Part shown: piece after piece, positions 16,252-41,966 of the stretch | How positions within the stretch are numbered: the first letter of the stretch is position 1 | Layout: the number at the start of each line of letters is the position of its first letter | Source: Lampropedia cohaerens | Lineage (GTDB): Bacteria > Pseudomonadota > Gammaproteobacteria > Burkholderiales > Burkholderiaceae_C | Assembly (NCBI RefSeq): GCF_001005215.1 | Contig: NZ_LBNQ01000033.1 | Coordinates: 124,001-188,000, forward strand | Reading direction: 5' to 3' | Length of the DNA stretch: 64,000 nt | The notes under the pieces: model-generated | Told to the model about the DNA's origin: nothing | Database searches by the model: none | Seen by the model: only the letters and a program-made list of their open reading frames with translations | Made by a program: the position numbers and the translations under genes

Positions 16252-16301
16252 GGGAGCAGGCCTCCACGCCGCTTGGAAAGTGGGGCTGGAAAACAGCATG
16301 A

Positions 16302-16328
16302 AGGCAGAACGTGGTTCTGCCTTTTTTT
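16302..16328 (+). terminator. Intrinsic terminator of the typA cluster
   Basis: Perfect 9-bp stem AGGCAGAAC/GTTCTGCCT with a GTG loop followed by seven T residues. It separates the housekeeping cluster from the cas operon that starts at 16367. The AT-rich 40 bp after it probably contains the cas promoter. Confidence 0.88.
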
Positions 16329-16366
16329 ATGAAAATTCGCAGCAATATGTGTTAAAAAATGCATCC

Positions 16367-19042: not shown

Positions 19043-20598
19043 GCAAAGCGTTCAATGTGCTGGACAAGCCATGGTTGCCCGCAAGGTTGACCGATGGCAG
19101 TGTGGTGGACCTTGGGCTGCTTGAGGTATTCCGACGCAGCGGGGAAATATCGGCGCTGGCAGAAACCTCACCCCCCAGTCTGGTTGCACAGTACCGCTTG
19201 CTGCTGGCCATCGTGCATCGCGCCATGACCCGCGCGTTCGGGCACTGGAACAACAAGCAGCGGGCCCAGTGGTATCTGGAAGGGTTGCCAGTGCCTGCCA
19301 TACAGGACTACCTGGAGCACTGGCGGGAACGTTTCTGGCTCTTCCACCCAGAGCACCCTTTTCTGCAAGTGGCGGCATTGGCCACGGCGGAGGAAACGCG
19401 CGAAAAGCGCAAGCCATGGACGCAAATAGCACTGGCCAGTGCCAGCGGCAACACCCCGGTGGTGTTCGACCATGCGCTGGACAATGCGCCGGAGGCGATT
19501 GATCCGGCAGCTGCCATACGTACTCTGCTGGGTTTTTTGCAGTTCACGCCTGGTGGCTTGGTCAAAACCTTGCGGGATGCCGACAAGGCCGGCGCGTTGG
19601 TCAATACCGCCGCAGTTATCCCGGTTGGGCAAACGCTGGCGCAGACATTGGCATTGGCATTGCATCCTTCGCCGAGGCAGGGTGCGGAGGAGGATTTGCC
19701 TGCCTGGGAGCGAGAACCGTTGACGATTGCGCAGCTTCGCGGAGCACCAGTGCTGGCCACCGGTGCCAATGACCGGTACACACGGCAAAGCAGGGCAGTG
19801 CTGCTGTTGCCTGACGACGAGGATGGCCGCATTCGCTGGTTGCGGTTTGCTGCAGGTTGGGCGTTGGGGGAGGATCCGAATGCGCCCGATCCCATGGCCG
19901 CTTTCCGAGCGGGAAGCAATGGATTGGTGCGGCTGACCTTTGTGGACGGGCGCGCGCTTTGGCGTGATTTGCCTGCGCTTTTGCCCAATCCCGACAAGCA
20001 AAGCCAACCTCCGGCCGTTCTGGGATATGCAATGGACGGGCATCGGCAAATTAGCGATGAACACCCCTACCAGCCACTGTTGGTTGCCGGCTTGGCCAGC
20101 GATCAGGCCAAGTTGTTGCGTTGGCGCGCCGAGCAGGTCAGTTTGCCAGTGGCGTTGCTGGAGGATACCGATCGAGCTGGGTATTTGCGCGTTCTGCTCG
20201 ATCGTGCCGAAGGCCTCTTCAAGGATGTGAGCGGCTTGGCCGCACGCATGCTGGCCGAGACGCTGCCCGATCCCGACAGCAAAGATACGCGCAGCCGAGC
20301 CCGTGATTTGCTGGCACGTGGGCCCTTGGCATCCGTCTATTTTTCAACGGCTGAGCGGGCTTTGTCGCCTGTACTGAATAGGCTGGGGCAAGGCATGTTT
20401 GATGACGCCGACCTAGCCTGGAATGTGGCACTGCGCCAAAGCGCCTTGCAGGCCTGGGACCGAGTTGTAGTCGGATTGGGCCGATCGCCACGCGCCTTGC
20501 GGGCGGACGCCAAATTCCTGCCACGTTTTCATGGCCTGCTGAACAAGCAGGTGCCCAAGGTTGAGCGCGCTGTCAGCGCAGAGGAGAGCATTGCGTGA
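19039..20598 (+). CDS. casA: Cascade large subunit Cas8e (Cse1/CasA)
   Basis: Large subunit of the type I-E interference complex (519 residues), which recognises the PAM and recruits Cas3. The N-terminus FNVLDKPWLPARLTDGSVVD is characteristic of the Cse1 family, as are the PEHPFLQVAAL segment and the region around FLQFTPGGLVK. The C-terminal helical bundle includes the YFSTAERALSPVLNRLG stretch. It overlaps cas3 by 4 bp and cse2 by 4 bp, so translation is probably coupled across the operon. Confidence 0.95.
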   Translation: MSKAFNVLDKPWLPARLTDGSVVDLGLLEVFRRSGEISALAETSPPSLVAQYRLLLAIVHRAMTRAFGHWNNKQRAQWYLEGLPVPAIQDYLEHWRERFWLFHPEHPFLQVAALATAEETREKRKPWTQIALASASGNTPVVFDHALDNAPEAIDPAAAIRTLLGFLQFTPGGLVKTLRDADKAGALVNTAAVIPVGQTLAQTLALALHPSPRQGAEEDLPAWEREPLTIAQLRGAPVLATGANDRYTRQSRAVLLLPDDEDGRIRWLRFAAGWALGEDPNAPDPMAAFRAGSNGLVRLTFVDGRALWRDLPALLPNPDKQSQPPAVLGYAMDGHRQISDEHPYQPLLVAGLASDQAKLLRWRAEQVSLPVALLEDTDRAGYLRVLLDRAEGLFKDVSGLAARMLAETLPDPDSKDTRSRARDLLARGPLASVYFSTAERALSPVLNRLGQGMFDDADLAWNVALRQSALQAWDRVVVGLGRSPRALRADAKFLPRFHGLLNKQVPKVERAVSAEESIA

Positions 20599-21143
20599 CT
20601 GATCCTGCGGAACGATTCATCCAGTATTTGACGACGCTTGCCGAGCGTGACCGGGGTGCGCTGGCAACCTTGCGCCACAGCCTCGCGTTTGCGCCGGGGG
20701 CGTATCCCAGGGCTTTCCCCTATGTGGAACGTTTTGCTGGCGCAGCCGCGCACGAGCGCGACGCACGGCGGTTGGCACTGTATGCGGTGGCCGCGTTGTT
20801 TGCGCGGCACCCCAAGCAGCAGGCGCAAAGTTTCGCCAGTGCGTTCGGGCAGCTCTTTCGCAAGCGCGGGAGCGCCAGTATCGAAAACCGCTTCGTGGCG
20901 CTGCTGGAGGCCGATGCTGAAAACATTTTCGACTACCTGCGCCAGGCCATCAGCTTGCTGGCCGTGGACGATATGGGGTTGAATTACGCCACTTTGTTGA
21001 AGGACCTGTCGGTATGGATGAACCCCAATCGCAATCCAGACCCGTTACGCCAGCGCTGGGCGCGTGACTTCTATCGCGCCGCGCAGGATGAAGAAGCCTC
21101 CCCGGATCCCGACGCAGCCACTGACCACGCCAATGCGGCATAA
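20595..21143 (+). CDS. casB: Cascade small subunit Cse2 (CasB)
   Basis: Small all-helical subunit (182 residues), present in two copies in Cascade and bracing crRNA and target DNA. Supporting features are the position between cas8e and cas7e, the length, and family-like segments (FIQYLTTLAERDRGALATLRHSLAF, read across several helices, and FRKRGSASIENRFVALLEAD). Arg/Lys-rich patches fit nucleic-acid contact. Overlaps cas8e by 4 bp. Confidence 0.92.
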   Translation: MTDPAERFIQYLTTLAERDRGALATLRHSLAFAPGAYPRAFPYVERFAGAAAHERDARRLALYAVAALFARHPKQQAQSFASAFGQLFRKRGSASIENRFVALLEADAENIFDYLRQAISLLAVDDMGLNYATLLKDLSVWMNPNRNPDPLRQRWARDFYRAAQDEEASPDPDAATDHANAA

Positions 21144-21154
21144 AGGAAAACACC

Positions 21155-22288
21155 ATGAGCCTTTTTCTAGAATTCCATCTGATCCAGAACTTTGCGCCCT
21201 CCAACCTCAACCGCGATGACACCGGCGCGCCCAAGGACGCCATCTTCGGTGGCCAACGCCGCGCGCGCGTCAGTAGCCAGTGTTTCAAGCGCGCCATCCG
21301 CCTTGCGGCGGCAGAGCTTGATTTGTTGCCACACGAAAACCGGGGCATTCGTACCAAGAAGCTGCAAACCCTCCTGCTGGAAAAACTCGCCGAGCGCGAT
21401 CAGCAGGAAGCCAGGGCAAAAGTTGAAGCAGCATTGTCTGCCGCAGGCCTGAAACTCAAGGACGATGGCAAGACCGAATACCTGCTGTTCCTCGGCGAAA
21501 ACGAGGTAACAGCCTTTGCCGAGCTGATTCAGCAGCATTGGGATGCCCTGCCCGTAGGCGGCGACAAGAAGAGCAAGAAAGACAGCAAAGCGGCCATTCC
21601 GCCGGAGATCGTCAAGCAGGCCAAAGCGCTGCTCAATGGCGGCAAGGCAGTGGATGTGGCGCTGTTTGGGCGCATGCTGGCCGACCTGCCCGCAGTCAAC
21701 CAGGATGCCGCTTGCCAGGTGGCCCACGCCATCAGCACCCACCGCGTGGAGCGCGAATTTGATTACTTCACAGCAGTGGATGACAAAGGCGATGAAGACG
21801 AAACCGGCGCCGGCATGATTGGCCAGGTTGAATTCAACTCCGCCACTTTTTACCGCTATGCCGTGCTGGACGTGAACAAGCTGCGCAGCAATCTGCAAGG
21901 TGACCGCGAGCTGGCACTCTCCGCCGTGGCTGCGTTTACCCAGGCCATGGCACGGGCGATTCCAACGGGTAAACAAAACAGCTTCGCCGCACACAATCCG
22001 CCTGCGTTCATTGGCGTCAGTGTGCGACATGCCACGCCGTTGAATCTGGCCAATGCGTTCGAAAAGCCTGTTTTCGCAAGGCAGGACCAGGCACTGACCG
22101 AGCAATCAGTGGCCGCGCTTGCCGCCTACGAAACCAAGCTGGCCAGCGTCTATGCCGACGCTGCCGACCAATGGCTGTATCTGGATCTCACCGGACAGTG
22201 GCCGAATGACAAGGGCGACAAGGCCGCGAGCTTGGCGGAGTTGACACAAAAGGTGCGTCAACGGATCGACCAGCAGCTGGGGGAATAA
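21155..22288 (+). CDS. casC: Cascade backbone Cas7e (Cse4/CasC)
   Basis: Backbone subunit (377 residues) that polymerises along the crRNA, six copies in the E. coli complex. Typical N-terminus FLEFHLIQNFAPSNLNRDD and the RNA-contacting FGGQRRARVSSQCFKRAIR. The RAMP-like fold continues through EFDYFTAVDD, MIGQVEFNSATFYRYAVLD and PTGKQNSFAAHNPPAF. It begins 11 bp after cse2, preceded by AAAGGAAA. Confidence 0.96.
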   Translation: MSLFLEFHLIQNFAPSNLNRDDTGAPKDAIFGGQRRARVSSQCFKRAIRLAAAELDLLPHENRGIRTKKLQTLLLEKLAERDQQEARAKVEAALSAAGLKLKDDGKTEYLLFLGENEVTAFAELIQQHWDALPVGGDKKSKKDSKAAIPPEIVKQAKALLNGGKAVDVALFGRMLADLPAVNQDAACQVAHAISTHRVEREFDYFTAVDDKGDEDETGAGMIGQVEFNSATFYRYAVLDVNKLRSNLQGDRELALSAVAAFTQAMARAIPTGKQNSFAAHNPPAFIGVSVRHATPLNLANAFEKPVFARQDQALTEQSVAALAAYETKLASVYADAADQWLYLDLTGQWPNDKGDKAASLAELTQKVRQRIDQQLGE

Positions 22289-22291
22289 GGC

Positions 22292-22993
22292 ATGGCCACA
22301 TTGCTGCTGCGCCTGCAAGGGCCCATGCAGGCCTGGGGCACGACCAGTCGCTTCGATGAGCGCGACACCCAGCTGGAGCCTTCCAAATCCGGTGTACTTG
22401 GCCTTGTCTGCGCGGCCTTGGGGCGTGATCGCGCCGAGCCCGTAGATGATCTGGCCGCATTGCGTATGGGCGTGCGCGTGGACCGGGAAGGCGTGCCGAT
22501 GCGGGATTATCAGACCATTGGCGGAGATCGAGATCTAAAGAGGCAGAGACAAGCCGTTCGCACGGCGAGTGGAGACTTCCGTAAGGACCCGATAGTCAGC
22601 CCGCGCTTTTACCTGTCTGACGCGGTTTTTCTTGTCGGCTTAGAGGGTGAGCAAGCCTTGCTCGAACGCATTCACACCGCATTGAGGCAACCGTGCTGGC
22701 CCCTGGCGCTGGGCCGCAAAAGTTTTGTTCCGTCGCTGCCCGTGCATTTGCCCGATGCCGTCGTGCAAGCACCACTGGAGCAAGCTCTGGCGCAGTGGCC
22801 CTTGCTGGTTGACCCAAAGGCAAATGCGCTCACCGTGACTCTGCGTGTAGTGCTTGAGCACCCGACCGAAGGGGCCGTGCGGCTGGATCAGCCAGTTGCA
22901 CCGTTTGCGCAACGCCGCTTTGGCCCCCGCTTTGTGAAATCCGTGACTTTGACTGTGGAGGTCAAGCATGTACCTGACCCGGCTGACGCTTGA
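22292..22993 (+). CDS. casD: Cascade subunit Cas5e (CasD)
   Basis: RAMP protein (233 residues) that caps the crRNA 5' handle in Cascade. The N-terminus LLLRLQGPMQAWGTTSRFDE is diagnostic of Cas5e, with PSKSGVLGLVCAALGRDR following. The Gly-rich LGRKSFVPSLPV loop is also typical. It starts 3 bp after cas7e and its end overlaps cas6e by 26 bp. Confidence 0.95.
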   Translation: MATLLLRLQGPMQAWGTTSRFDERDTQLEPSKSGVLGLVCAALGRDRAEPVDDLAALRMGVRVDREGVPMRDYQTIGGDRDLKRQRQAVRTASGDFRKDPIVSPRFYLSDAVFLVGLEGEQALLERIHTALRQPCWPLALGRKSFVPSLPVHLPDAVVQAPLEQALAQWPLLVDPKANALTVTLRVVLEHPTEGAVRLDQPVAPFAQRRFGPRFVKSVTLTVEVKHVPDPADA

Positions 22994-23588
22994 TCCCCGC
23001 AATGCGCAGGTTCGGCGTGATCTTGCGAATCCCTATGACATGCATCGCAGCCTGGTGCGCGCCTTTGTGCAAAACGAGGAGCAAACACCTCCACGCTTCC
23101 TGTGGCGCCTTGAACCCCAGATCAACTGGCAGGCACTGCCGGTGCTGTTGGTGCAATCCAGCGAGGCGGCGGACTGGAGCCATTTGAAGGCCGTGCCCAA
23201 CTATCTGAAAAGAGAGCCGGAGGAAAAGGCATTCACCTTGCACGCTTGGCTGCTGCCGCAGCAGCGTTACCGGTTCCGGTTGTTGGCCAATCCAACCGTC
23301 GCGCGTGAAAGAAAGCGCTATGGCATCGCTTCCCAAGAGGCGCAACTGGAATGGCTGAGTAAACAGGGTCAGCGACAGGGCTTCTCGATCGAGTCTGCCG
23401 TGGTGATCGCCAGTGATGTTCTCAAGGCGCGCAAGCAAACACACGTGATCAGCCTGCAACGCGCTTGTTATGAAGGCAACCTCGTCGCGACCGATGTCGC
23501 ATCGTTTGCCAATGCCATCCAGAACGGGATTGGTCCCGGAAAGGCATTTGGCTGCGGCTTGTTGAGCTTGGCTCGGTTGGGAAGATAG
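22968..23588 (+). CDS. casE: crRNA endoribonuclease Cas6e (CasE)
   Basis: Processes the pre-crRNA within each repeat and stays bound to the 3' hairpin; 206 residues. The start MYLTRLTLDPRN is family-typical. His26 in NPYDMHRSLVRAF is at the position expected for the catalytic His of Cas6e. The C-terminal Gly-rich loop IGPGKAFGCGLLSLARLG is the RAMP G-loop. The array repeat has a matching GC-rich hairpin (CCCCGC...GCGGGG), its predicted substrate. The gene overlaps cas5e in a different frame. Confidence 0.95.
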   Translation: MYLTRLTLDPRNAQVRRDLANPYDMHRSLVRAFVQNEEQTPPRFLWRLEPQINWQALPVLLVQSSEAADWSHLKAVPNYLKREPEEKAFTLHAWLLPQQRYRFRLLANPTVARERKRYGIASQEAQLEWLSKQGQRQGFSIESAVVIASDVLKARKQTHVISLQRACYEGNLVATDVASFANAIQNGIGPGKAFGCGLLSLARLGR

Positions 23589-23601
23589 GGGCGCCTACAC
23601 C

Positions 23602-24835
<1,234 letters not shown>

Positions 24836-27900: not shown

Positions 27901-29024
27901 TCCCCGCAGGCGCGGGGATGAACCGTCAATGTTGGCAATGCGACCTGCCAGCTTCACGCGTTCCCCGCAGGCGCGGGGATGAACCGTCCGCGTATTCGTC
28001 ATCCGGTGGCTCAGCATCGCGTTCCCCGCAGGCGCGGGGATGAACCGTCGGCACTGCCAACATACGGAGAACAGGTGGCGCGTTCCCCGCAGGCGCGGGG
28101 ATGAACCGAAGGCGAGATCTACCGCGAGCCGCAGGCAGCCGCGTTCCCCGCAGGCGCGGGGATGAACCGAGCCAGAGCCCGAGCGCCCGGTCATGCCCAC
28201 TGCGTTCCCCGCAGGCGCGGGGATGAACCCTGCGCCTCCAGGTTGCTGATGGCCTCGTCGATGCGTTCCCCGCAGGCGCGGGGATGAACCGTCCGATCTT
28301 GGTGTTCCGCTGTTGTCATTGCCGCGTTCCCCGCAGGCGCGGGGATGAACCGTAAGAATCTGCCACATGCCATGTACGGGTCTAGCGTTCCCCGCAGGCG
28401 CGGGGATGAACCGCAACATTTCGTCGGGTTGCTCAATCCGGTACTGCGTTCCCCGCAGGCGCGGGGATGAACCGTCCGCGTATTCGTCATCCGGTGGCTC
28501 AGCATCGCGTTCCCCGCAGGCGCGGGGATGAACCGCGGTTCCTGCTTGGGCTGAACATCGGTAGGCAGCGTTCCCCGCAGGCGCGGGGATGAACCGCCGA
28601 CCGGATCATTGAATCTCAGACCGTGGAAGCGTTCCCCGCAGGCGCGGGGATGAACCGCCATTGATTCCACTAGAGATTTCACTGTCGACGCGTTCCCCGC
28701 AGGCGCGGGGATGAACCGCCTGCCCGCAGTAGCTGTGCAGCTCAATGGCACGCGTTCCCCGCAGGCGCGGGGATGAACCGACAGTAATCACAGCAGCACC
28801 TCCTGCGCGGCAGCGTTCCCCGCAGGCGCGGGGATGAACCGTTGACAACTGTTATCGTGTGAGCCTCTCTATCGCGTTCCCCGCAGGCGCGGGGATGAAC
28901 CGAATGCACCGCCGATCAATGCGGCGCCCAGCACGCGTTCCCCGCAGGCGCGGGGATGAACCGGCCACTTCGATGGCGGCCGCTTCGTTGGGGTCGCGTT
29001 CCCCGCAGGCGCGGGGATGAACCG
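24904..29024 (+). CRISPR. Type I-E CRISPR array, leader-proximal part (about 68 repeats)
   Basis: Direct repeats of 29 nt, beginning GCGTTCCCCGC and ending GGGGATGAACCG, with a 61-bp period and mostly 32-nt spacers (a few of 33). From the distance of first to last repeat I estimate about 68 repeats. The repeat is nearly invariant; the unit at 28202-28230 ends in C instead of G. Duplicated spacers: 26032/26583, 26949/27315, 27193/27376 and 27987/28475. The spacers at 26705 and 27071 differ at only two positions. The last repeat (28996-29024) is followed by a spacer-sized stretch that continues into a phage tail gene. Open frames across the array are artefacts of the repeat. Confidence 0.98.
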
Positions 29025-29642
29025 GAATTCACCCTGGAATGGGAAACCACCGACGCCACTGCAGATGATTCCATCGGCGCATTGCGCGAGAACCTGGCCA
29101 CATTCCAGACTCTGAGCGTATCAGGGGACGGCACGCTCAAGGCAAGCGGCGCTGGAGCGGCAAACCTGATTGAGCTGACCAAGCACGTCGCCAATCCAAT
29201 CGCAACGGGCGGACAGCCGGTCGTGTGGGTGCGCATGACGTTCCCAGACCTGACGTTCACGTTCTTTGCCATCCTCTCCAACCTGAGCCGCAGCGCGCCA
29301 TTCGACGACGTAGTGACCTACTCGTTCGAGGCATCTGCCACCGCTTCGGACTACGGCTTGATCGTCGAGGACACCCCGTCCGTTGTCACACCAACGTCTG
29401 TGACCGTCACGCCCGCAACGGTGAGCATCACCGAAGGTGCCACGCAAGCCCTCACGGCGACCGTTGGCCCTGCTGGCGCACCGCAGGCGGTAACCTACAC
29501 CAGCGCGAGTAATGCTGTTGCGACAGTCAGCGCGGCAGGGGTTGTGACGGGCGTTGCTGCAGGAACCACGACGATCACCGTGCGCAGTGCTACGGCGCCA
29601 AATGTGACCGCAACTGTGAGCGTAACTGTCACTGAGCCATGA
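29025..29642 (+). pseudogene. Phage tail tube protein with Ig-like domain, 5' truncated by the CRISPR junction
   Basis: The frame enters from the CRISPR repeat; the phage-derived part starts EFTLEWETTDATADD. The first ~115 residues look like the C-terminal half of a siphophage major tail (tube) protein. The last ~85 form a bacterial Ig-like (Big_2 type) domain, with VTVTPATVSITEGATQALTA and the terminal AAGTTTITVRS motif, a common decoration on tail tubes. The stop overlaps the next gene start by 4 bp, as in intact tail operons. The N-terminal half and the start codon are missing. The first 32 nt correspond in position to a spacer. Confidence 0.7.
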
Positions 29643-30223
29643 TCCTGACGGAGATCGGCGAGATCGGCGTGCACATAGATGGGCAGACGCACATCCTGCG
29701 TCCATCCCTCTATGCCATGACGCAGCTGGGCAGCCCGAAGGAAATCGTGGCGCTGTACGCCGCTGTCATGGATGCAGGCCCGCGGCTGATCGACTGCATT
29801 GGCGTCATCAATGCCTGCACTGTTGCGGATGTGAGCCGGGCTTTTGGCTGCGTGGTGGACAAGGATGGCAAGCTGGAATACCAGCCAGGACTGGCTCCGG
29901 CTGAGGATGTTGTGGCCATCGCCAGATGCCTGCTCAAGCACGGCGTCACTGGCGCACTCAAACAATTGCCAAAGGCCGCCGACGCCGAATACTCCGACGA
30001 ATTTGACGCCAGAGCGATGGTAGCGGCGGCAATGGCGCACCTTGGGCTGTCCAGCCAAGAGGCGTGGCAGTCGACCATGACCGAGCTAGTGGGTGCGTTC
30101 CGGTCGAAATTCCCGCCAGATGCCAAGACCAATCCTGGCTCCCGGGCGCCTACGCTGGAGGAACACGAGCAGACCATGGCGTGGTTTGAGCAGGTGGAGG
30201 CTATGCGAGGCGGCAATGTGTGA
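29639..30223 (+). CDS. Phage tail assembly protein (DUF6246-like)
   Basis: 194 residues, starting MILTEIGEIGVHIDGQTHIL and overlapping the tail tube stop by 4 bp. Its place between tail tube and tape measure is that of a tail assembly chaperone, and the sequence resembles the DUF6246 family of siphophage tail proteins. The C-terminal part (LEEHEQTMAWFEQVEAMRGG) is helical. The segment coding IVALYAAVMDAG (29744-29776) is matched by a spacer at 39306-39338 with three mismatches. No frameshift product was identified. Confidence 0.6.
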   Translation: MILTEIGEIGVHIDGQTHILRPSLYAMTQLGSPKEIVALYAAVMDAGPRLIDCIGVINACTVADVSRAFGCVVDKDGKLEYQPGLAPAEDVVAIARCLLKHGVTGALKQLPKAADAEYSDEFDARAMVAAAMAHLGLSSQEAWQSTMTELVGAFRSKFPPDAKTNPGSRAPTLEEHEQTMAWFEQVEAMRGGNV

Positions 30224-30256
30224 CAATTAGCCTGCAGGTTGTACTTGGAGGCGGGC

Positions 30257-30577
30257 ATGACTGATGATCTCGACATTCGTCGCCATCACTCGCGTATGTC
30301 TAAACTGAGGGCCGAAGGTTTAAGGGTAAAGTACATGCACCTATCGGCACTGTCGCCAACCACTCGAAAGTCACACGCAGATAGGCACGGGCAGCTGTTC
30401 ACAGCAGCCGAGGTTCGTGAGTTCTGGTCAGACCCGGAGAACATCAAAGGCTGCAAGTGCAGTATCACGGAAGTGATGGTCGATGAGCTTGGGAAACCCA
30501 TCGTCCCAAGCATACAAAAGAGGGCATTGAAAGCCTACGAAACTATGAAGAAGCGAGGGTATGAATGGTCAAAGTGA
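30257..30577 (+). CDS. Small phage protein with minor-head-like Cys motif
   Basis: 106 residues, MTDDLDIRRHHSRMSKLRAE onward, with a GGAGG-like site before the ATG. The segment HADRHGQLFTAAEVREFWSD followed by IKGCKCSITEVMVDELGKP resembles the C-terminal Cys-containing domain of phage head-morphogenesis (SPP1 gp7/Mu gpF-like) proteins, here as a stand-alone gene in the tail operon. Function is not established. The end overlaps the next gene by 13 bp. Confidence 0.5.
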   Translation: MTDDLDIRRHHSRMSKLRAEGLRVKYMHLSALSPTTRKSHADRHGQLFTAAEVREFWSDPENIKGCKCSITEVMVDELGKPIVPSIQKRALKAYETMKKRGYEWSK

Positions 30578-30906
30578 ATCGCGTGTATAAGCTCCTGTCA
30601 ATTTCATCTCTCGCCTTTCTGCTGGTTTGCCAGATCAATCATGCAAATGCTTCTGTTTCTGATGAGAACAGAGAGAAGTGCGCGGCAGTTTCGGACATTG
30701 CCGCCAGCGTGATGGAGCTTCGGCAAATGGGGGCTTTGATGAATGAAGTGCTTGGCGACGGAGGCTCTCCCGTTGAGGAAATACACAACTTGCTCGTTGA
30801 AAGAGCGTACAAGATGCCAAGATTCCCTGAATCAATGGTGGACGAGGTTGTACGAGACTTTCAGAATGAAATATTCATGGAGTGCTACTCAGCCAATAGA
30901 AAATAA
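30565..30906 (+). CDS. Small exported protein of unknown function in the phage tail operon
   Basis: 113 residues with a clear N-terminal signal peptide (MVKVNRVYKLLSISSLAFLL, then VCQINHANA with an AxA-like cleavage site). The mature part is helical, contains two Cys (REKCAAVSD and MECYSANRK) that could form a disulfide, and has no domain I recognise. It overlaps the preceding gene and is followed by an intrinsic terminator. It appears AT-richer than its neighbours. Confidence 0.5.
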   Translation: MVKVNRVYKLLSISSLAFLLVCQINHANASVSDENREKCAAVSDIAASVMELRQMGALMNEVLGDGGSPVEEIHNLLVERAYKMPRFPESMVDEVVRDFQNEIFMECYSANRK

Positions 30907-30920
30907 ATAGCTCTTTCAAT

Positions 30921-30942
30921 CCGCCATTTGGCGGTTTTTTTT
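30921..30942 (+). terminator. Intrinsic terminator before the tape measure gene
   Basis: Short stem CCGCC/GGCGG with an ATTT loop followed by eight T residues (30935-30942). Oriented with the phage genes; it probably modulates transcription between early tail genes and the tape measure gene. Confidence 0.65.
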
Positions 30943-30980
30943 GCCCGCTTATGTGGGTATTGTTGTTTCTGGAGGCTGTA

Positions 30981-33587
30981 ATGTCGGAGCAAGTCGGCGC
31001 GATCTACTACACGGTGGAGGCAGACACCGAAAAACTGTTGTCTGGATCTAAGAAAGTCGATGCGTCTTTGGATGACTTGAACAAGACACTTGGCAAGACA
31101 GATAAGGCGTCCTCGAAGGCGTCAATGCGCATGCGCGAAACCGCCAAAGCTGCGCGTGAGGTTGCAATTGGCGCGGATCAGGCATCAAAGGCGTGGTCTA
31201 CCTTTTCCAAAGTGGTTGCGGCATACTTGTCGATGCGTACTCTGTCTTACCTTGCAGAGCTTGCCGATGTGTACGGGCAGAACGCAGATCGGATCCGCAA
31301 CGCAACGAAAAACACCGAAGATTACGAAAAAGTCCAAGCGAGGCTGCTGCAGACCGCGAACGGAACATATCGGTCACTGGCAGAAGCTCAAGAAGTATTC
31401 CTGTCCACAAGCCGAGTGCTGCAAGACCTTGGGTACTCGCTGGACGAGGTCCTAGATATTTCCGACTCTCTGAGTTATGCGTTTGTGCGAGATGCAGCTA
31501 GAGCAGATCAGGCCACGAGCGCCATGGATGCCTATTCAAAGGCATTGGCGAAGGGGAAAATCGACGCGGATGCATGGGCATCAATCATTGCTGCGTCAGA
31601 TTCGATCATCCAAAGCGTTGCAAATGCTACCGGAAGGACGACGCTTGAAATCCAGCGGCTAGGCGCAGAAGGCAAGCTGTCGATTGAGGCTCTGAACGAA
31701 GGGCTTCGCCAATCACTGGCGGAAAACAAGGCCGCAGCGGATGCCATGAGCGTGTCCACGCGCGATGCAACAGTGCAGATGCGCAATGCGTTGACGGTCT
31801 TTGCAGGCAAGGTGAACGAGGCCAGTGGCGCATCAAACATCTTCACGGAGACAGTTGGTGAGATGGCGCGCACTCTGCAAGACCCGGCGACGATCAATGC
31901 TGCAGTGGACATGGCGAATGGCATCGTCACCGCGCTGAATACCATCATCAAGGGGATGCGGAATACCGTCAGGATTGCTAAATGGTTTGGTGAGGAGCTG
32001 GCAGCACGTTTGCACGGCGCTGCAATTGGCGATATCGTGCGTCTCGAAGAGGAAGAGCGTGTACTACGCAAACGCCTTAATTCCTGGTACTCATTTGCTT
32101 TGGATCGAGAGGAGCTGCAACGCAGGCTGGACAAAAACCTCAGCAATCAAAGAGCGACACGTGAAATAGCTGCTGCCTATGCTCCCAGGAGCTCTGCTGC
32201 TCCGTCGACAGTACCCAGTAATCCCACGGCCCCGCGAATCGTATCGGCAGAGGCGCCAGGAAAGCCCAGAAATCCGAAAAATAGCCCGGCAAACAAAGAG
32301 CTGCGCGAGACAATCCGATTGCAAGAGCAGCTTGCAAAAGCAGGAGCCAGCTATCTTCTGAATTTGCAAGAGCGTGTCGGAGAAGTTGACAAACTCTCGC
32401 ACAGTGAGCGCCTGTACTACGACATTGCCGCAGGCACTATGACATTGACAGCCAAAGAGCTTGAACAAGCAAGAGAATTGGCGAGGGTTTTGGATGAGCG
32501 GGAGAAATCACGCAAAGCGGAAGCTGATGTTCTCAACATACTGAACGCAGAGCTATCGGCCCAACGCCAACTCATGTCCGAAATAGCAGGCTACGACGCC
32601 GATATTGCCGGAATGAGCATGGGCGACCAAGCTAGAGCGGACATGGAAGCGCGCCTGCAACTGCAGCAGCAGTTTGCCCAGCGAATGCAGCAGATCGAGG
32701 ATCAGCGCAGGCAGGCACTGGCCCAGGCCGACGAATCCGAGCATGAGCGCATCCGCAAGATGTACGACGATGTGCTCAAGATCGAGCAGGACTATCAAGG
32801 GAAGTCGCTGGCTGCGTATGACGAATACATCCAGCGCAAGCGTGAGGCAGACACTGACTGGTCAACCGGCGCAAAGAGGGCGTGGGAAAACTACGTCGAG
32901 CAATCCCAGAATGCAGCATCACAAGCTGACAACGCAATGTCCAACTGGCTGCAGGGCACGGAAGACGCACTGGTGAATTTTGTGCAGACCGGCAAGCTCA
33001 GCTTCAGGGATTTGGCGAACAGCATCATTGCAGATCTAGCGCGTATCGCGGCCAAGCAAATGATTACCGGGCTGATCGGAAACATCTTTGGCAGCTTTGC
33101 AGGCGGATGGCAGGCTGCAGGCGTCCAAACATCTGGTGCAGTCACAACGGGAATTGCAGGGGGGAGTATCACCACTACCAACCTCCCTCCGGCTCCAGGT
33201 AGAGCAAACGGTGGGCCTGTGGGGGCCAACAAGTTGTACCGCGTCAATGAGAGGGGTCAGCCGGAGGTGTTGAACGTATCAGGGAGGCAGTACCTGCTGA
33301 TGGGTAATCAGTCTGGCAATGTGACTGCGATGGGCCGTGGGTCGTCTGGCGGTGGTGGTGGATGGTCTGGCGCTAGCGATGTGCGGGTAGTCATCGAGAA
33401 CATGGGCCAGCCGCTGCAAGCCACCAGCGCCAGGTTGGAAACAGACGGGATGGGGCAGGTGCTGCGCGTGGTGGTCGAGCAGGCCACGCAACGCGCAGTC
33501 GCTGCCGTGACCAACTCCATTGCGTCGGGCCAGGGCGGACCGCACCAGGCGCTCAACAGCCGCTATGCGATGCAGCCGCGCAGATAG
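30981..33587 (+). CDS. Phage tail tape measure protein
   Basis: Sets the length of the siphophage tail; about 868 residues. ATG at 30981 follows GGAGG. The N-terminal part (VGAIYYTVEADTEKLLSGSK) and the region LSMRTLSYLAELADVYGQNA match the tape measure N-terminal domain. The middle is a long helical, Ala/Gln/Glu-rich rod (LQLQQQFAQRMQQIEDQRRQ). The C-terminal part (LVNFVQTGKLSFRDLANSII through IARIAAKQMITGLIGNIFGS-like sequence and Gly-rich linkers) matches the lambda gpH C-terminal domain. The stop is directly abutted by the convergent hicB stop. Confidence 0.9.
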   Translation: MSEQVGAIYYTVEADTEKLLSGSKKVDASLDDLNKTLGKTDKASSKASMRMRETAKAAREVAIGADQASKAWSTFSKVVAAYLSMRTLSYLAELADVYGQNADRIRNATKNTEDYEKVQARLLQTANGTYRSLAEAQEVFLSTSRVLQDLGYSLDEVLDISDSLSYAFVRDAARADQATSAMDAYSKALAKGKIDADAWASIIAASDSIIQSVANATGRTTLEIQRLGAEGKLSIEALNEGLRQSLAENKAAADAMSVSTRDATVQMRNALTVFAGKVNEASGASNIFTETVGEMARTLQDPATINAAVDMANGIVTALNTIIKGMRNTVRIAKWFGEELAARLHGAAIGDIVRLEEEERVLRKRLNSWYSFALDREELQRRLDKNLSNQRATREIAAAYAPRSSAAPSTVPSNPTAPRIVSAEAPGKPRNPKNSPANKELRETIRLQEQLAKAGASYLLNLQERVGEVDKLSHSERLYYDIAAGTMTLTAKELEQARELARVLDEREKSRKAEADVLNILNAELSAQRQLMSEIAGYDADIAGMSMGDQARADMEARLQLQQQFAQRMQQIEDQRRQALAQADESEHERIRKMYDDVLKIEQDYQGKSLAAYDEYIQRKREADTDWSTGAKRAWENYVEQSQNAASQADNAMSNWLQGTEDALVNFVQTGKLSFRDLANSIIADLARIAAKQMITGLIGNIFGSFAGGWQAAGVQTSGAVTTGIAGGSITTTNLPPAPGRANGGPVGANKLYRVNERGQPEVLNVSGRQYLLMGNQSGNVTAMGRGSSGGGGGWSGASDVRVVIENMGQPLQATSARLETDGMGQVLRVVVEQATQRAVAAVTNSIASGQGGPHQALNSRYAMQPRR

Positions 33588-33980
33588 TCAAATACGTTGC
33601 TGGATCGCCTTTTCAGCCGCCTGCGCGAGAAACGCAGAGCGGGACTGGCCCAACTCGCGCGCAGTTGCATCAATGCGAGCCACGAGATTCTCGGGCAGGC
33701 TGATGTTGAGACGCACCGCACGAGAACGGATCTTGCTGGGGTCGAGATCAACGAGTAGCCAAAACCCGCCCTGGTAGTCGGGGGCATTGCGCCAACGCTC
33801 GGGTGACGACGGCGCGGGAATAGGGTCGTCATCTGCTCCGAAGTGCGCCTCGAATGCCTCTTGGGCGGCACGGGGTAGATCATCGAGCGTATCCGCTGCA
33901 GCAAAGCAGCCGGGGATGTCGGGGAAGATCGCGCCGTAGGCGCTCTCCTGATCTTTATGAACGTAAACGGGGTAGAGCAT
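33588..33980 (-). CDS. hicB: HicB-family antitoxin
   Basis: 130 residues. The N-terminal degraded RNase H-like HicB domain (MLYPVYVHKDQESAYGAIFP, with DIPGCFAAADTLDD) is followed by a C-terminal ribbon-helix-helix DNA-binding domain (VRLNISLPENLVARIDATAR). Start ATG 33980 is preceded by GGAGGCGAT, a strong ribosome-binding site. It neutralises HicA and probably represses the pair at the palindrome upstream of hicA. The pair is inverted within the phage tail operon, like a moron cassette. Its stop abuts the tape measure stop. Confidence 0.9.
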   Translation of the reverse strand: MLYPVYVHKDQESAYGAIFPDIPGCFAAADTLDDLPRAAQEAFEAHFGADDDPIPAPSSPERWRNAPDYQGGFWLLVDLDPSKIRSRAVRLNISLPENLVARIDATARELGQSRSAFLAQAAEKAIQQRI

Positions 33981-34006
33981 ATCGCCTCCTTTAAAAAGGC
34001 CCCGCC

Positions 34007-34189
34007 TTAGCGGAGGCCTGCTTGTTTGAGAATGCTGCGGACTGTTTGCAATGGCAAATCCTTTTTGGGATGGGGCACTGTGACCTTGCCGGGCTTGGTT
34101 GGGTGCTTGAACTGATGGTGTGAGCCAACAGTGTGGACGAGATACCAACCGTCCGCCTTGATTTGTTTGATGAGTGCCTTGCTGTCCAT
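34007..34189 (-). CDS. hicA: HicA-family mRNA interferase toxin
   Basis: 60 residues, MDSKALIKQIKADGWYLVHT, with the double-stranded-RNA-binding-like fold and the catalytic His in GSHHQFKHP. The C-terminus VPHPKKDLPLQTVRSILKQA is family-typical. It cleaves mRNA when free of HicB. It precedes hicB in the order toxin-antitoxin. The start at 34189 was chosen over a longer in-frame start because homology begins there and the promoter's -10 box lies immediately upstream. Confidence 0.9.
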   Translation of the reverse strand: MDSKALIKQIKADGWYLVHTVGSHHQFKHPTKPGKVTVPHPKKDLPLQTVRSILKQAGLR

Positions 34190-34224
34190 GTGTGTAATTA
34201 TACACACTACACAAGAATACACAA
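34190..34224 (-). promoter_or_regulatory. hicAB promoter with overlapping operator palindrome
   Basis: On the minus strand: TTGTGT (34224-34219), a 16-bp spacer, then TATAAT (34202-34197). The perfect inverted repeat TGTGTA-ATTA-TACACA (34191-34206) covers the -10 box, as expected for autorepression by the HicAB complex. The predicted transcription start is at or within a base or two of the hicA ATG, suggesting a leaderless toxin message. Confidence 0.6.
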
Positions 34225-34266
34225 TAGATTATTTGTTCGCTGACTGAAAAAGTTTCGGTTTTCACC

Positions 34267-34292
34267 AAGCCTCGGCCTTTCGCCGGGGCTTC
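34267..34292. terminator. Hairpin between hicA and the next tail gene, possible terminator
   Basis: AAGCCTCGGC pairs with GCCGGGGCTT across CTTTC, with one T-G wobble, followed by a short CTTTG. The T tract is weak, so termination is uncertain. Confidence 0.35.
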
Positions 34293-34306
34293 TTTGTTTG
34301 TGAGCT

Positions 34307-34663
34307 ATGGCAACCCTCCCTGATTACGTGACTGTGCTGCTCGCCGGGTTTGGCGACCGCATTGACCCGTCTGTGCAGCGCACGGAAATGGCGCGCGGCC
34401 CGGCCAAGCAAACGCTGCTCAACAGCCAAGTGCGCCACGAACTTCAGGCCACGCTTTTCTTCCGCACGCGCGATGACGCCAATGCGTTTGAGGACTGGTA
34501 TCTCAACGATATCAAGCGCATCGGCTATTTCGGCTGGGTGTACCCGCGCACGGGGCAGACCGTTCAAGCGCGATTTGTCGGCGGTGACATTGGCACGCTG
34601 GTGCCGCACGTGGGGCGGTTTTTCATGAGCCAGCGCGACGTGACGATGGAGTTCTACGCATGA
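34307..34663 (+). CDS. Small phage tail protein of unknown function
   Basis: 118 residues, MATLPDYVTVLLAGFGDRID onward. It lies between the tape measure and the DUF1833-like gene, a place usually held by lambda gpM-like minor tail proteins. The sequence has alternating beta-strand character (ELQATLFFRTRDDANAFEDW) and ends in RDVTMEFYA. I do not recognise the family with certainty. Its stop overlaps the next start by 4 bp. Confidence 0.6.
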   Translation: MATLPDYVTVLLAGFGDRIDPSVQRTEMARGPAKQTLLNSQVRHELQATLFFRTRDDANAFEDWYLNDIKRIGYFGWVYPRTGQTVQARFVGGDIGTLVPHVGRFFMSQRDVTMEFYA

Positions 34664-35133
34664 CGCTATCGACGACATTCCGCGCCAACCGCCAGCGCGT
34701 TACCGACACGTCCGGCGTGCTTGTGCTCGTCGAGATCACGCACCCGCAGTTTTCGGAGCCGCTGCGGCTGGCCAATGACACGCAAAACTGGGTCAGCCGC
34801 GGCATTACGTACGTCGGCTACCCGTTCGAGGTCCAGTTGCCCAACGATGCGCAGGGCGAGACGCCACAGGCCCGCATCGTCATCGACAACCTTGGCGGCG
34901 ACATGCTCGCCGAGTTGGAGTCGTGGCAGCCCGGTGAGCCCATCATGTGCAAGCTCATCGTGACCGACCGCTCATCCCCAGACGTGCACGAGATCACGAT
35001 CACGGAGCCGCTCAACGTCGTCAGTGCAGACGCAGCAACCGTGACCTGCTCGATCGGCCTCGACTACCTGCTGCGCCGCTCTGCCGTGCTGCTGCGGCAT
35101 GACCCAGCCACCTCGCCGGGGATATTCGCATGA
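34660..35133 (+). CDS. DUF1833-like phage minor tail protein
   Basis: 157 residues. The N-terminus (FRANRQRVTDTSGVLVLVEI) and the segments NDTQNWVSRGITYVGYPFEV and QARIVIDNLGGDMLAELESW match the DUF1833 family found in siphophage tail-tip modules, in the position of the lambda gpL-like protein. It overlaps both neighbours by 4 bp, so it is translationally coupled. Confidence 0.7.
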   Translation: MTLSTTFRANRQRVTDTSGVLVLVEITHPQFSEPLRLANDTQNWVSRGITYVGYPFEVQLPNDAQGETPQARIVIDNLGGDMLAELESWQPGEPIMCKLIVTDRSSPDVHEITITEPLNVVSADAATVTCSIGLDYLLRRSAVLLRHDPATSPGIFA

Positions 35134-35537
35134 GTGTGGACATCCGCAAACTCGATGCGCTGGTGGGCCGCGCCCATGGCCCGCAGTACGACTGCGCCGA
35201 CCTTGCCATGGATGCCGCACGCGAGCTGTTTGGCCGCGAGATTGTGCTGCCATCGGCCCGCCCGCGCCCGCAGGGCACGCGCAGCCAGGCCACGGCGCTG
35301 CTGCGCGCCATGGGCGAGCTGGCCCGGCCTGTAGCCGAGCCGCAGGACGGCGACCTGGTGCTGATGGCCCTCAAGGGCTGCGAGATCGCTGGGCATGTGG
35401 GCACATGGCTGCACGTCAATTACTCGCCGCATGTGCTGCACACATCGCTGGCCATGGGATATGCCGGGCTGACCCGGCTTGATGAATTGCCGCGCTACGG
35501 CATCCGTGTTGAGGGGTTTTACCGATGGATCGACTGA
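35130..35537 (+). CDS. NlpC/P60-like phage tail assembly peptidase
   Basis: 135 residues. The catalytic Cys is in YDCADLAMDAARELFG and the His in GCEIAGHVGTWLHVNY, the usual NlpC/P60 arrangement. Tail-tip peptidases of this kind (lambda gpK-like) cleave cell-wall peptides during DNA entry or serve in tail assembly. It overlaps the DUF1833-like gene by 4 bp and the tail-tip gene by 13 bp. Confidence 0.75.
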   Translation: MSVDIRKLDALVGRAHGPQYDCADLAMDAARELFGREIVLPSARPRPQGTRSQATALLRAMGELARPVAEPQDGDLVLMALKGCEIAGHVGTWLHVNYSPHVLHTSLAMGYAGLTRLDELPRYGIRVEGFYRWID

Positions 35538-36039
35538 CAGCAACCGTGGGCGGGCAACCGGCTGACGTGCTCGATGCTGCCGGGCGCCTGGTCATCACGC
35601 CGCACGCGCTGACGCTGGAGGGGCAGACCAACGTCCCCGCTGATCTGCTGCCGGGCGAGAGCCTGCACGCCTTCCTGCGCCGTCACGTTGACAGCATCGA
35701 CTCTGGCGCATGGTCCGTCTACATCGGCGGCGTGCAGATTCCGCGCGAGATGTGGGTGCGGGTGTATCCCAAGCACGGCACGCTGATCGCCGTACGCGCC
35801 GTGGTGCAGCGGCAAGTGCTGCAGCTCGTTGCTATCGCGGCGTTGAGCTATTTCACGTTCGGAGCCGGGTCTATCGGATCATCGCTGATCGGGATCAATG
35901 GCGCGGCGGCGTTGGGCGCAACCGGCACTGCGCTGGCAGTTGGCGCGATCAACGGTGCGCTGTTCCTCGGCGGCGCCATGCTCATCAACAAGGTCCTTGG
36001 ACCGAAGTTGCCAGGCCCTGCCGGTGCCGCTGAGCAAGA
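35525..36039 (+). pseudogene. Phage tail tip/host-specificity (J/TipJ-like) protein, 3' truncated by the CRISPR junction
   Basis: Only the first ~171 residues are present. The N-terminal beta-rich part (LTATVGGQPADVLDAAGRLV; GVQIPREMWVRVYPKHGTLI) and the following Gly/Ala-rich hydrophobic helices (LVAIAALSYFTFGAGSIGSS and GAINGALFLGGAMLINKVLG) are typical of tail assembly I/TipJ-like proteins, which usually run to more than 1000 residues. The frame runs into the repeat at 36040 and stops there (RSPQARG-stop). The last 32 nt (36008-36039) follow an AAG and occupy the place of a spacer. Confidence 0.7.
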
Positions 36040-37810: not shown

Positions 37811-38176
37811 GCGTTCCCCGCAGGCGCGGGGATGAACCGGCAACGCATGAATCCAGCGCGTCGTAGAGGTCGCGTTCCCCGCAGGCGCGGGGATGAACCG
37901 AGCGCGTACACATCGGCTTCCACGGTGCGCGCGCGTTCCCCGCAGGCGCGGGGATGAACCGTTTGCCGCTTCTTCCTCTCTGGACCATTGGTGGCGTTCC
38001 CCGCAGGCGCGGGGATGAACCGGCAACGCATGAATCCAGCGCGTCGTAGAGGTCGCGTTCCCCGCAGGCGCGGGGATGAACCGAGCGCGTACACATCGGC
38101 TTCCACGGTGCGCGCGCGTTCCCCGCAGGCGCGGGGATGAACCGTTTGCCGCTTCTTCCTCTCTGGACCATTGGTG
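37811..38176 (+). repeat. Tandem duplication of three CRISPR repeat-spacer units
   Basis: The 183-bp block 37811-37993 (three repeats with spacers at 37840, 37901 and 37962) is repeated exactly at 37994-38176. This points to unequal recombination between repeats after acquisition, not to three independent acquisitions in the same order. Confidence 0.9.
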
Positions 38177-39182: not shown

Positions 39183-39212
39183 GGGGTTAGCGCTCATGTG
39201 CTAACCCCTTTT
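39183..39212 (+). terminator. CRISPR spacer forming an intrinsic terminator (first)
   Basis: Spacer 39184-39215 together with the last G of its repeat forms a 9-bp stem GGGGTTAGC/GCTAACCCC with an 8-nt loop, followed by TTTT. It is oriented to stop plus-strand (pre-crRNA) transcription. Confidence 0.65.
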
Positions 39213-41147: not shown

Positions 41148-41170
41148 AAACCCGCTTCGGCGGGTTTTTT
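41148..41170 (+). terminator. CRISPR spacer forming an intrinsic terminator (second)
   Basis: Spacer 41142-41173 contains an 8-bp stem AAACCCGC/GCGGGTTT closed by a TTCG tetraloop, with a run of six T from 41165. It is a textbook rho-independent terminator in the orientation of pre-crRNA transcription, close to the leader-distal end. Confidence 0.75.
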
Positions 41171-41385
41171 CATGCGTTCCCCGCAGGCGCGGGGATGAAC
41201 CGCCCGGGCGTGAGCCGGTAATCAGCTGCGCGAAGCGTTCCCCGCAGGCGCGGGGATGAACCGCGCGGGGACAGGTATGGGCCTGATGCCGTGTGGCGTT
41301 CCCCGCAGGCGCGGGGATGAACCGCGCGCCAACAATCTGCCGCAGTGGATCGAGCAGCGTTCCCCGCAGGCGCGGGGATGAACCG

Positions 41386-41673
41386 GTACGCAAGCGTGGC
41401 CGTGAGCGTTACCTGCCATTGCTGGCAGAGGCCCTGCAAGACCCTGACGAAATCTGGGTACGCATTGAATGGATTGAATCCGCCGCGCGTGCAGAAGTGC
41501 GCAGGCGCTATGTGGCGCGTTACATCATTGATGGGGAAGATGCGCCGGTGTTGCTGGTGTTTGAGCGTGGCCCCAGCGGCTGGGTGGGTGTGACCGCCTT
41601 CAGGGCAGCTGATCAGTCGCCGGATAGCTGGCGCGTGGGCGTGCGCCTGTACCGCAGAGCAAGCGAAGAGTAG
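41386..41673 (+). pseudogene. C-terminal fragment of Mu gpF-like head protein (PBECR2-type domain)
   Basis: 95 phage-derived residues, VRKRGRERYLPLLAEALQDP through EDAPVLLVFERGPSGW to VGVRLYRRASEE-stop. This matches the PBECR2-like nuclease-fold domain often fused to the C-terminus of Mu-like head-morphogenesis (gpF) proteins: an R-Y-L-x-L N-terminal helix, the D-P-D-E-I-W strand and the terminal G-V-R-L-Y-R-R. The frame is entered from a repeat, so the head domain and start codon are missing. The downstream gpG-like gene supports the call. Confidence 0.6.
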
Positions 41674-41796
41674 ACAAACGAAGACCCCGCACGGCGCCAC
41701 ATGCGGGGTCATTCCGGGTGTAGGGTCGGTGGACCTGGCGCGGCCTTCTCACCCGATGAACTGTGGCAATTTTGACATCGCAAAGGGCAAACCGCA

Positions 41797-41966
41797 ATGG
41801 CAGGCAGCAACATCCAGCTCAAGGCCGGCATCGTCATCGACGACCGCGAGGCGCGCGAGGCCCTGCAGCGCCTGGCCATTGAAGGCCAGACCGCACCGCT
41901 GATGCGCCAGCTGGGCGAGGCATTCCAGGAAAGTACGGAACGGCGATTCAGAAGCCAGACCGGCCC
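41797..41966 (+). pseudogene. N-terminal fragment of phage virion morphogenesis (Mu gpG-like) protein
   Basis: 57 residues, MAGSNIQLKAGIVIDDREAR through LMRQLGEAFQESTERRF and SQTGP, the typical start of the phage virion morphogenesis family (Phage_tail_S, Mu gpG), normally about 150 residues. The frame is cut by the CRISPR repeat at 41967. Following a gpF-like gene is the normal Mu-like order. Its last 33 nt follow an AAG and occupy the position of a spacer. Confidence 0.6.

What the first reader, a model, noticed from the sequence alone, without database searches (positions are those of the whole stretch)
29025..36039. 7-kb phage tail module joined to a CRISPR array exactly at spacer boundaries, with an AAG PAM at the right joint
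The left joint is the first base after a repeat (28996-29024). At the right joint, phage sequence runs to 36039, and the 32 nt 36008-36039 directly before the next repeat are preceded in the phage gene by AAG (36005-36007), the canonical type I-E PAM. So the last 32 nt are both a spacer and its protospacer. The two joints use different spacers, and the array continues in the same orientation. This fits a double exchange between an array carrying two anti-phage spacers and the phage genome, replacing the intervening units. It also fits an assembly that crossed through two spacer-length overlaps. If real, it would be a route by which CRISPR arrays capture long phage DNA and place it under the array promoter. 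Both phage genes at the edges are truncated.
Basis: partly seen in the sequence, partly recalled or inferred. Interest (0 to 1): 0.85.

Follow-up and report, generated by a model that had tools for sequence, protein, structure and literature searches.

The report
Phage DNA captured inside CRISPR array
In this bacterium's CRISPR memory, two stretches of virus DNA far too long to be normal memories begin and end exactly where virus-matching memory units would sit, as if the memory and the virus genome had swapped DNA there, although a sequencing assembly error is not fully ruled out.

Summary
Insert 1 (29025-36039, 7,015 nt; phage tail genes plus hicAB) lies between two intact repeats of a 158-repeat type I-E array. 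The right joint is AAG + 32 nt + repeat. At the left joint, 83 of 89 fetched homologs have AAG (6 AAA) directly before the base aligned with 29025. A rough chance for all four joints is 1.6e-7, if independent. Best explanation: homologous recombination over about 33 bp between spacers and their protospacers, replacing array units with phage DNA. Main rival: misassembly through the same identities. Against that rival, the array holds exact repeats up to 212 nt, and the J gene occurs only once, truncated, in this assembly. No reads were available. A genome-collection scan found five other internal joints of this kind, but the excess over control arrays is not significant (Fisher p = 0.064, or 0.17 with matched repeats). 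Spacer-target recombination is known in staphylococci, so this is a new variant.

The parts
16280..24832 (+). complete type I-E cas operon: cas3, cse1, cse2, cas7, cas5, cas6e, cas1e, cas2e, directly upstream of the array
   Evidence: NCBIfam: cas3_core, TIGR02547, TIGR02548, TIGR01869, TIGR01868, TIGR01907, TIGR03638, TIGR01873
24904..42055 (+). type I-E CRISPR array, 158 repeats, 155 ordinary spacers, two inserts; last repeat degenerate
   Evidence: repeat scan
28996..29024 (+). intact repeat at the left joint of insert 1
29025..36039 (+). insert 1: 7,015 nt of phage tail module between two repeats
29025..29056 (+). inferred spacer A / protospacer A; AAG precedes it in phage homologs
   Evidence: 83 of 89 fetched homologs AAG, 6 AAA
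29025..29642 (+). major tail tube protein with Big_2 domain, N-terminus missing (reads from the repeat)
   Evidence: phrog_853 E 5.8e-46, Big_2 E 2e-14
29639..30223 (+). DUF6246 protein of the tail region
   Evidence: PF19759 E 1.5e-35
30239..30577 (+). small gene like the C-terminal part of Mu F head-morphogenesis proteins
   Evidence: phrog_22052, phrog_758
30565..30906 (+). small phage gene of unknown function
   Evidence: phrog_2315
30921..30934 (+). terminator-like stem followed by eight T
30951..33587 (+). tape measure protein
   Evidence: PF20155, PF09718, phrog_339
33588..33980 (-). HicB-like antitoxin
   Evidence: PF15919 E 2.3e-40
34007..34189 (-). HicA toxin of the hicAB pair
   Evidence: PF07927 E 5.4e-23
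34267..34291 (+). second terminator-like stem on the + strand
34307..34663 (+). virion structural protein of the tail module (phrog_384)
34660..35133 (+). minor tail protein, DUF1833
   Evidence: PF08875, phrog_396
35130..35537 (+). minor tail protein; cell-wall hydrolase position of the tail module
   Evidence: phrog_329 E 8.5e-6; position next to J as in Haboob
35525..36039 (+). J-like tail tip protein, N-terminal 171 codons only, cut by the repeat
   Evidence: phrog_31 positions 105-229 of 1565
36005..36007 (+). AAG PAM of the right joint, insert 1
36008..36039 (+). spacer B / protospacer B
   Evidence: 32 nt between AAG and the next repeat
41386..41966 (+). insert 2: 581 nt of a Mu-like phage head region between two repeats
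41386..41673 (+). C-terminal part of a Mu F-like protein with a PBECR2 nuclease domain; left part missing
   Evidence: PF18810 E 2.1e-23; no PHROG match
41386..41417 (+). inferred spacer C / protospacer C; AAG or AAA precedes it in most homologs
   Evidence: 13 homologs: AAG 7, AAA 3, other 3
41797..41966 (+). phage virion morphogenesis (Mu G-like) gene, 5' part only
   Evidence: PF05069 E 1.1e-4, slightly below the curated cut-off
41931..41933 (+). AAG PAM of the right joint, insert 2
41934..41966 (+). spacer D / protospacer D (33 nt)
   Evidence: 13 ordinary intervals of this array have the same length

Best explanation
Two pieces of phage DNA were recombined into the array through spacer-protospacer identity. 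For insert 1, the array once held a spacer A and, further from the leader, a spacer B. Both were copied in the same orientation from AAG-flanked sites 7 kb apart in one siphophage. The phage genome recombined with the array at A (33 identical bp: the repeat's last G plus 32) and at B (33 bp), replacing whatever units lay between them by the phage segment. This may have been a double exchange, or integration at A followed by a crossover at B that removed the rest. Insert 2 arose the same way from a Mu-like phage at spacers C and D. The product is self-safe: A loses its PAM, and B keeps its PAM but loses the upstream repeat that would give its crRNA a handle. The likely effect is to separate the 88 distal ordinary spacers from the leader promoter by terminators, while the piece carries an intact hicAB pair that could favour its retention. 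Shown: the anatomy, the AAG at two joints directly and at two by homology, and gene content. Inferred: the former spacers, the order of events, the recombinase, the effect on transcription.
For: All four joints abut perfect repeats. AAG lies at exactly spacer length inside both right joints, 32 and 33 nt, the two lengths seen in 154 of 155 ordinary intervals. AAG precedes both left joints in homologs: 83 of 89 (AAA in the other 6), and 7 of 13 (AAA 3, other 3). The slide control gives 3 of 268 and 2 of 178 positions as AAG-rich. The combined chance is about 1.6e-7 if the joints are independent. The edge genes are cut at the joints. Searching the assembly with insert 1 found itself and matches of 33 and 24 nt only; the insert 2 protein matched once, itself; J occurs only as the truncated piece (the same search rings in 4 of 14 control genomes). 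Spacer 122 resembles insert 1 (3 mismatches), as if copied from a relative of its phage. Five other genomes show internal AAG-32/33-repeat joints; the insert in L097 is one open frame whose residues 61-517 match phage proteins, and that in L104 begins a phage tail-fibre gene.
Against: No reads, no second assembly and no ancestral array could be examined. The phage itself was not found: exact searches of viral contigs for 23 nt of B and for the repeat gave 0, and the best-covering phage records match 12% of insert 1 at about 71% DNA identity. The left PAMs are inferred from a conserved lysine codon, and AAA also occurs. Apart from the joints, this array's own spacers give little support for AAG: of its matches with 7 or fewer mismatches in the phage loci searched, only spacer 123 is preceded by AAG. 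In the survey, the excess of internal joints over control arrays is not significant (5 of 14 against 2 interruptions in 20 arrays, Fisher p = 0.064; against 1 in the 9 arrays whose repeats fit the survey pattern, p = 0.17). 4 of the 5 are metagenome-assembled, and for L104 the left joint is AAG in 0 of 6 homologs as aligned (AAG sits 3 nt away in 4 of 6).
Confidence: 0.68

Rival explanations
1. Assembly chimera: reads of a co-sequenced phage and of the array were joined through the 33-34-bp identity of spacers A, B, C and D with their protospacers.
For: It predicts exactly the same joints, including the AAG at all four. The genome is a 41-contig draft. Four of the five survey examples are metagenome assemblies.
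Against: An assembler that joins at 33-34 bp should not be able to order this array: it holds 757 distinct repeated 33-mers and exact repeats up to 212 nt present in both copies, yet contig C33 (245,966 bp) runs through all 158 repeats. Searches for the rest of the phage in the assembly found J only once and truncated, and no match to a relative's major capsid protein (a weak test without a positive control). It must have happened at four joints with two phages.
Confidence: 0.22
2. Cas1-Cas2 integrated unusually long phage fragments as oversized spacers.
For: The left end of each insert looks like the PAM end of an ordinary spacer: directly after the repeat, AAG in most homologs.
Against: Nothing in spacer integration would place an AAG 32 or 33 nt before the far end; that happens in both inserts (chance about 0.0012 for the two together). 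The known I-E integrase measures about 33 bp (general knowledge).
Confidence: 0.04
3. Ordinary mobile-element insertion: a prophage, transposon or integron moved into a spacer by its own enzyme and decayed.
For: Arrays are interrupted by transposons elsewhere: L161 and L166 among 20 control arrays carry DDE-transposase insertions. [quoted passage not shown]
Against: No insert gene scanned matched an integrase or transposase family. Inserts start and stop inside structural genes, and both edges coincide with repeat boundaries. The two control insertions lack AAG at the right joint (0 of 2).
Confidence: 0.04

Closest known systems
[quoted passage not shown] 2019, doi 10.1038/s41564-019-0400-2; not held; known here from passages in PMC8616872 and PMC10434264)
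   Same: Recombination between spacers in the bacterial array and their targets in an infecting phage.
   Different: According to those passages it is an exchange that moves CRISPR-cas loci through transducing particles, or might add spacers. Here the product sits in a chromosome: phage DNA inside a type I-E array, bounded by two different spacers, AAG at each end, twice in one array.
Proviruses inserted in CRISPR arrays (stated for several bacterial genomes in a passage of PMC7099407; Varble et al. 2021 on Streptococcus pyogenes, title seen in reference lists only)
   Same: Phage DNA resides within a CRISPR locus.
   Different: By recollection, whole prophages integrate there, in S. pyogenes by site-specific recombination; exchange between phage-borne and host repeats has also been envisaged (passage in PMC8616872). 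Here only internal structural-gene segments are present, no integrase was found, and the joints lie at spacers.
IS insertions into I-E arrays (seen here in L161 and L166)
   Same: Array interrupted by foreign DNA.
   Different: IS carry transposase genes and show no AAG at spacer length before the right repeat (0 of 2).

Membership tests
type I-E CRISPR-Cas system | cas3, cse1, cse2, cas7, cas5, cas6e, cas1e, cas2e beside a 29-nt-repeat, 32-nt-spacer array | tested here: met
type I-E CRISPR-Cas system | AAG PAM in protospacers of this array's own spacers | tested here: inconclusive
   ordinary spacers with 7 or fewer mismatches in the held phage loci: spacer 123 preceded by AAG (7 mismatches); spacer 122 in insert 1 preceded by GAA (3 mismatches, slipped); spacers 20, 113, 147 and 152 (6-7 mismatches, several likely chance) not preceded by AAG
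spacer-protospacer recombination product | joints lie at spacer boundaries, with a PAM on the phage side at each joint | tested here: met
   direct at two right joints; by homology at two left joints
spacer-protospacer recombination product | the junction exists in cells (reads or PCR) | not testable with these tools
   no raw reads or strain
spacer-protospacer recombination product | source phage known, or ancestral array with spacers A and B | tested here: not met
   no near-identical phage (23 nt of B: 0 hits); A, B, C, D and the 155 ordinary spacers have no match with 5 or fewer mismatches in 45 loci from other I-E arrays
Cas1-Cas2 spacer acquisition | inserted unit of about 33 bp with arbitrary far end | tested here: not met
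   7,015 and 581 nt; far ends have AAG at 32/33 nt
prophage or IS insertion | integrase or transposase in the insert | tested here: not met
   no such family in the insert genes scanned

The most novel reading that the evidence does not exclude
CRISPR arrays of type I-E recurrently capture kilobase pieces of their targets by two-spacer recombination, a route by which a defence locus turns viral segments, here including an intact hicAB toxin-antitoxin pair, into inherited host DNA while silencing the older half of its own memory.
Probability: 0.27. Interest if true: 0.78.

Novelty: new variant of a known kind. Interest (0 to 1): 0.6.

Why it matters
If real, spacers are not only guides but also homology arms: an immune memory creates a recombination hot spot with its target. 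This would add a way for arrays to be broken, for phage genes to enter chromosomes and for old spacers to be silenced. It would make a simple prediction testable in any genome collection: foreign DNA in arrays with a PAM at spacer length inside the right joint and before the left joint. It also warns that such joints mimic assembly errors and are easily discarded.

Tried and rejected
A search for the phage's remainder in the same genome found none (one search is weak, as its answer itself says). Exact scans of viral contigs for the repeat and for 23 nt of B gave nothing. Nucleotide search with insert 2 and with the J fragment against phages gave nothing; protein searches did.

Rows dropped or not examined: for the left joint of insert 1, one search kept the best 80 of 104 relatives; with 9 earlier loci that makes 89, many of them near-identical (37 distinct 45-mers). 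For insert 2, one locus (L259) was dropped because its alignment began at residue 13, L090 gave no alignment, and of 25 phage records only one was fetched. Among the 13, L255/L256 and L257/L258 show the same letters, so 11 contexts are distinct: AAG 6, AAA 2, other 3. The three 'other' come from alignments that begin at residue 7 to 11 and were extended without gaps.

Survey for the same right joint in genome contigs (84,980 species genomes): 14 loci, of which 5 are internal to arrays and 9 are first or lone repeats (two of the nine are from one Parasutterella genome). L101: no relatives in plasmids or viral contigs. L097: relatives do not reach the left edge. L104: left joint not AAG as aligned. 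L094 and L100: left joints not tested. The survey is therefore suggestive only. A binomial p of 0.006 takes the control rate as exact; Fisher, which does not, gives 0.064.

Control arrays: 20 regions beside the 20 best cas1e hits outside the own genome among 300 genomes of the order (50 of 300 had any match, the own genome included) plus 4 same-genus regions. Several regions were cut short by contig ends. 20 arrays had at least 3 repeats, with 931 repeats in all 24 loci. Two had transposon insertions, one (L159) a variant repeat missed by the pattern, and one (L163) two runs of N that were not counted. Only 9 of the 20 have repeats that mostly fit the survey pattern, and 1 of these 9 (L166) is interrupted; with them Fisher gives p = 0.17. 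In one search the printed Fisher value of 0.30 paired 2 interruptions with 9 arrays by mistake; one search is the right table.

Papers: Varble 2019 is not held; its content is taken from passages of other papers. PMC8047081, PMC4223832 and PMC10651486 were seen by term passages only. Watson 2018 (PMC5821089), also seen by passages, concerns transduction of CRISPR loci, not array-phage junctions. Searches listed no title or abstract opening that reports phage segments bounded by two spacers in an array; this is a statement about those listings only.
Full report
What is there. The window holds a complete type I-E cas operon (16280-24832) followed by an array of 158 repeats in one orientation (24904-42055). 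Of 157 intervals, 155 are ordinary spacers (33, 34 or 35 nt counting the PAM-derived last base of the repeat). Two are not: 29025-36039 (7,015 nt) and 41386-41966 (581 nt).

Insert 1 is a siphophage tail module in array orientation: major tail tube protein without its start, DUF6246, two small genes, tape measure, a hicAB pair on the opposite strand, three small tail-module proteins and the first 171 codons of a J-like tail-tip gene. The best-covering phage records are Pseudomonas phages at about 71% DNA identity over 12% of the piece; the order of the tail genes agrees with phage Haboob. Insert 2 holds the end of a Mu F-like protein with a PBECR2 domain and the beginning of a Mu G-like gene, the latter a match slightly below its curated cut-off.

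Joints. On the right of insert 1 the sequence reads AAG, 32 nt, repeat; on the right of insert 2 it reads AAG, 33 nt, repeat. 32 and 33 nt are the two usual spacer lengths of this array (141 and 13 of 155 ordinary intervals). On the left the phage-side bases are gone, so I asked what precedes the same position in relatives. For insert 1, 83 of 89 loci have AAG and 6 AAA; among 37 distinct 45-mers, 32 have AAG and 5 AAA (one search had kept the best 80 of 104 relatives). For insert 2, of 13 loci 7 have AAG, 3 AAA and 3 something else; those 3 are extrapolated from alignments that begin at residue 7 to 11. One further locus was dropped because its alignment began at residue 13. AAG in at least half of the homologs occurs at only 3 of 268 and 2 of 178 positions, the joint being one of them each time. 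Multiplying the four rough chances, taken as independent, gives about 1.6e-7. The caution is that both left signals rest on a conserved lysine codon; the source phages themselves were not found.

Meaning. A joint of the form repeat + A-phage-AAG-B + repeat is what results if the array and the phage exchange strands inside spacer A and inside spacer B. The identity available is 33 bp at three joints and 34 bp at the fourth, counting the shared G (from the sequence, taking A and C as 32 nt). That is about the minimal length for RecA- or phage-recombinase-driven exchange (general knowledge). Cutting at protospacer A by Cascade-Cas3 would free a recombinogenic end there, although for B the usual direction of Cas3 runs into the insert (general knowledge; inference). 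The product carries no matching crRNA-protospacer pair from A or B: A has no PAM on the chromosome, B no upstream repeat (inference). The only ordinary array spacer that matches an insert with 7 or fewer mismatches, spacer 122 in insert 1, has 3 mismatches and GAA in place of AAG, so the captured piece is probably tolerated.

Is it an assembly error? The same joints would arise if an assembler crossed from array to phage inside a spacer. Against this: contig C33 (245,966 bp) runs through an array with 757 distinct repeated 33-mers, ten duplicated spacer pairs and one exact 212-nt repeat in both copies, which 33-bp overlaps should not be able to order. The J family occurs once in the genome, as the truncated piece. 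A search with insert 1 found, besides itself, matches of 33 and 24 nt, and the insert 2 protein matched only itself. These are arguments, not proof: the genome is a 41-contig draft and no reads were available.

Is it general? One scan of a collection of 84,980 species genomes for AAG + 32/33 nt + an I-E repeat gave 14 loci. Nine are first or lone repeats and 5 lie inside arrays: Zoogloea ramigera (355 nt), a Rhodocyclaceae MAG (1,551 nt, one open frame whose residues 61-517 match phage proteins), a Methylococcaceae MAG (478 nt), a Lysobacteraceae MAG (3,736 nt, with a resolvase gene) and an Azoarcus MAG (1,224 nt, with a phage tail-fibre start). In 20 control arrays there were two readable interruptions, both transposons, neither with AAG. 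The contrast is not significant (Fisher p = 0.064; p = 0.17 against the 9 control arrays whose repeats fit the survey pattern, 1 of them interrupted), and the one testable left joint (Azoarcus) failed as aligned (0 of 6).

Consequences. Insert 1 puts + strand terminator-like stems between the leader and 88 of the 155 ordinary spacers, so those are probably expressed less. This is a prediction only; the scan found 9 terminator-like sites on both strands against 6.4 expected in shuffles, so the individual stems, not their number, carry the argument. The hicAB pair could make loss of the insert costly (inference).

Known or new. Recombination between spacers and phage targets is known from staphylococci (review passage in PMC8616872; original not held), and proviruses have been seen in CRISPR arrays (passage in PMC7099407). 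What I did not find in the listings searched is a natural scar in a type I-E array bounded by two different PAM-bearing spacers, here twice in one array. I file it as a new variant of a known kind, with a real chance (0.22) that it is an assembly product.

Noticed in passing
37839-38176: Three consecutive spacers (98-100) are repeated in tandem as 101-103, giving an exact 212-nt repeat; seven other spacers also occur twice, one pair (42, 85) on either side of insert 1.
   Followed up: partly
39305-39338: Spacer 122 follows a repeat ending in A instead of G and matches insert 1 (DUF6246 gene) with 3 mismatches, as if copied from a relative of the same phage with a PAM slipped by one base.
   Followed up: partly
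41141-41173: Spacer 152 is itself a terminator-like hairpin with a T run, similar (7 mismatches) to sites in four of the related phage loci (L026, L027, L038, L049).
   Followed up: no
33588-34189: hicAB toxin-antitoxin pair on the opposite strand within the captured tail module, between the tape measure and minor tail genes.
   Followed up: partly
L161 and L166: Type I-E arrays of two other members of the order are interrupted by DDE transposase insertions (445 and 1,157 nt).
   Followed up: partly
L104:4736-5959: A 1.2-kb array insert in an Azoarcus MAG carries a phage tail-fibre start on one strand and a TPS-domain (haemagglutinin-type) gene start on the other; in 4 of 6 relatives an AAG lies 3 nt from the left joint.
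   Followed up: partly
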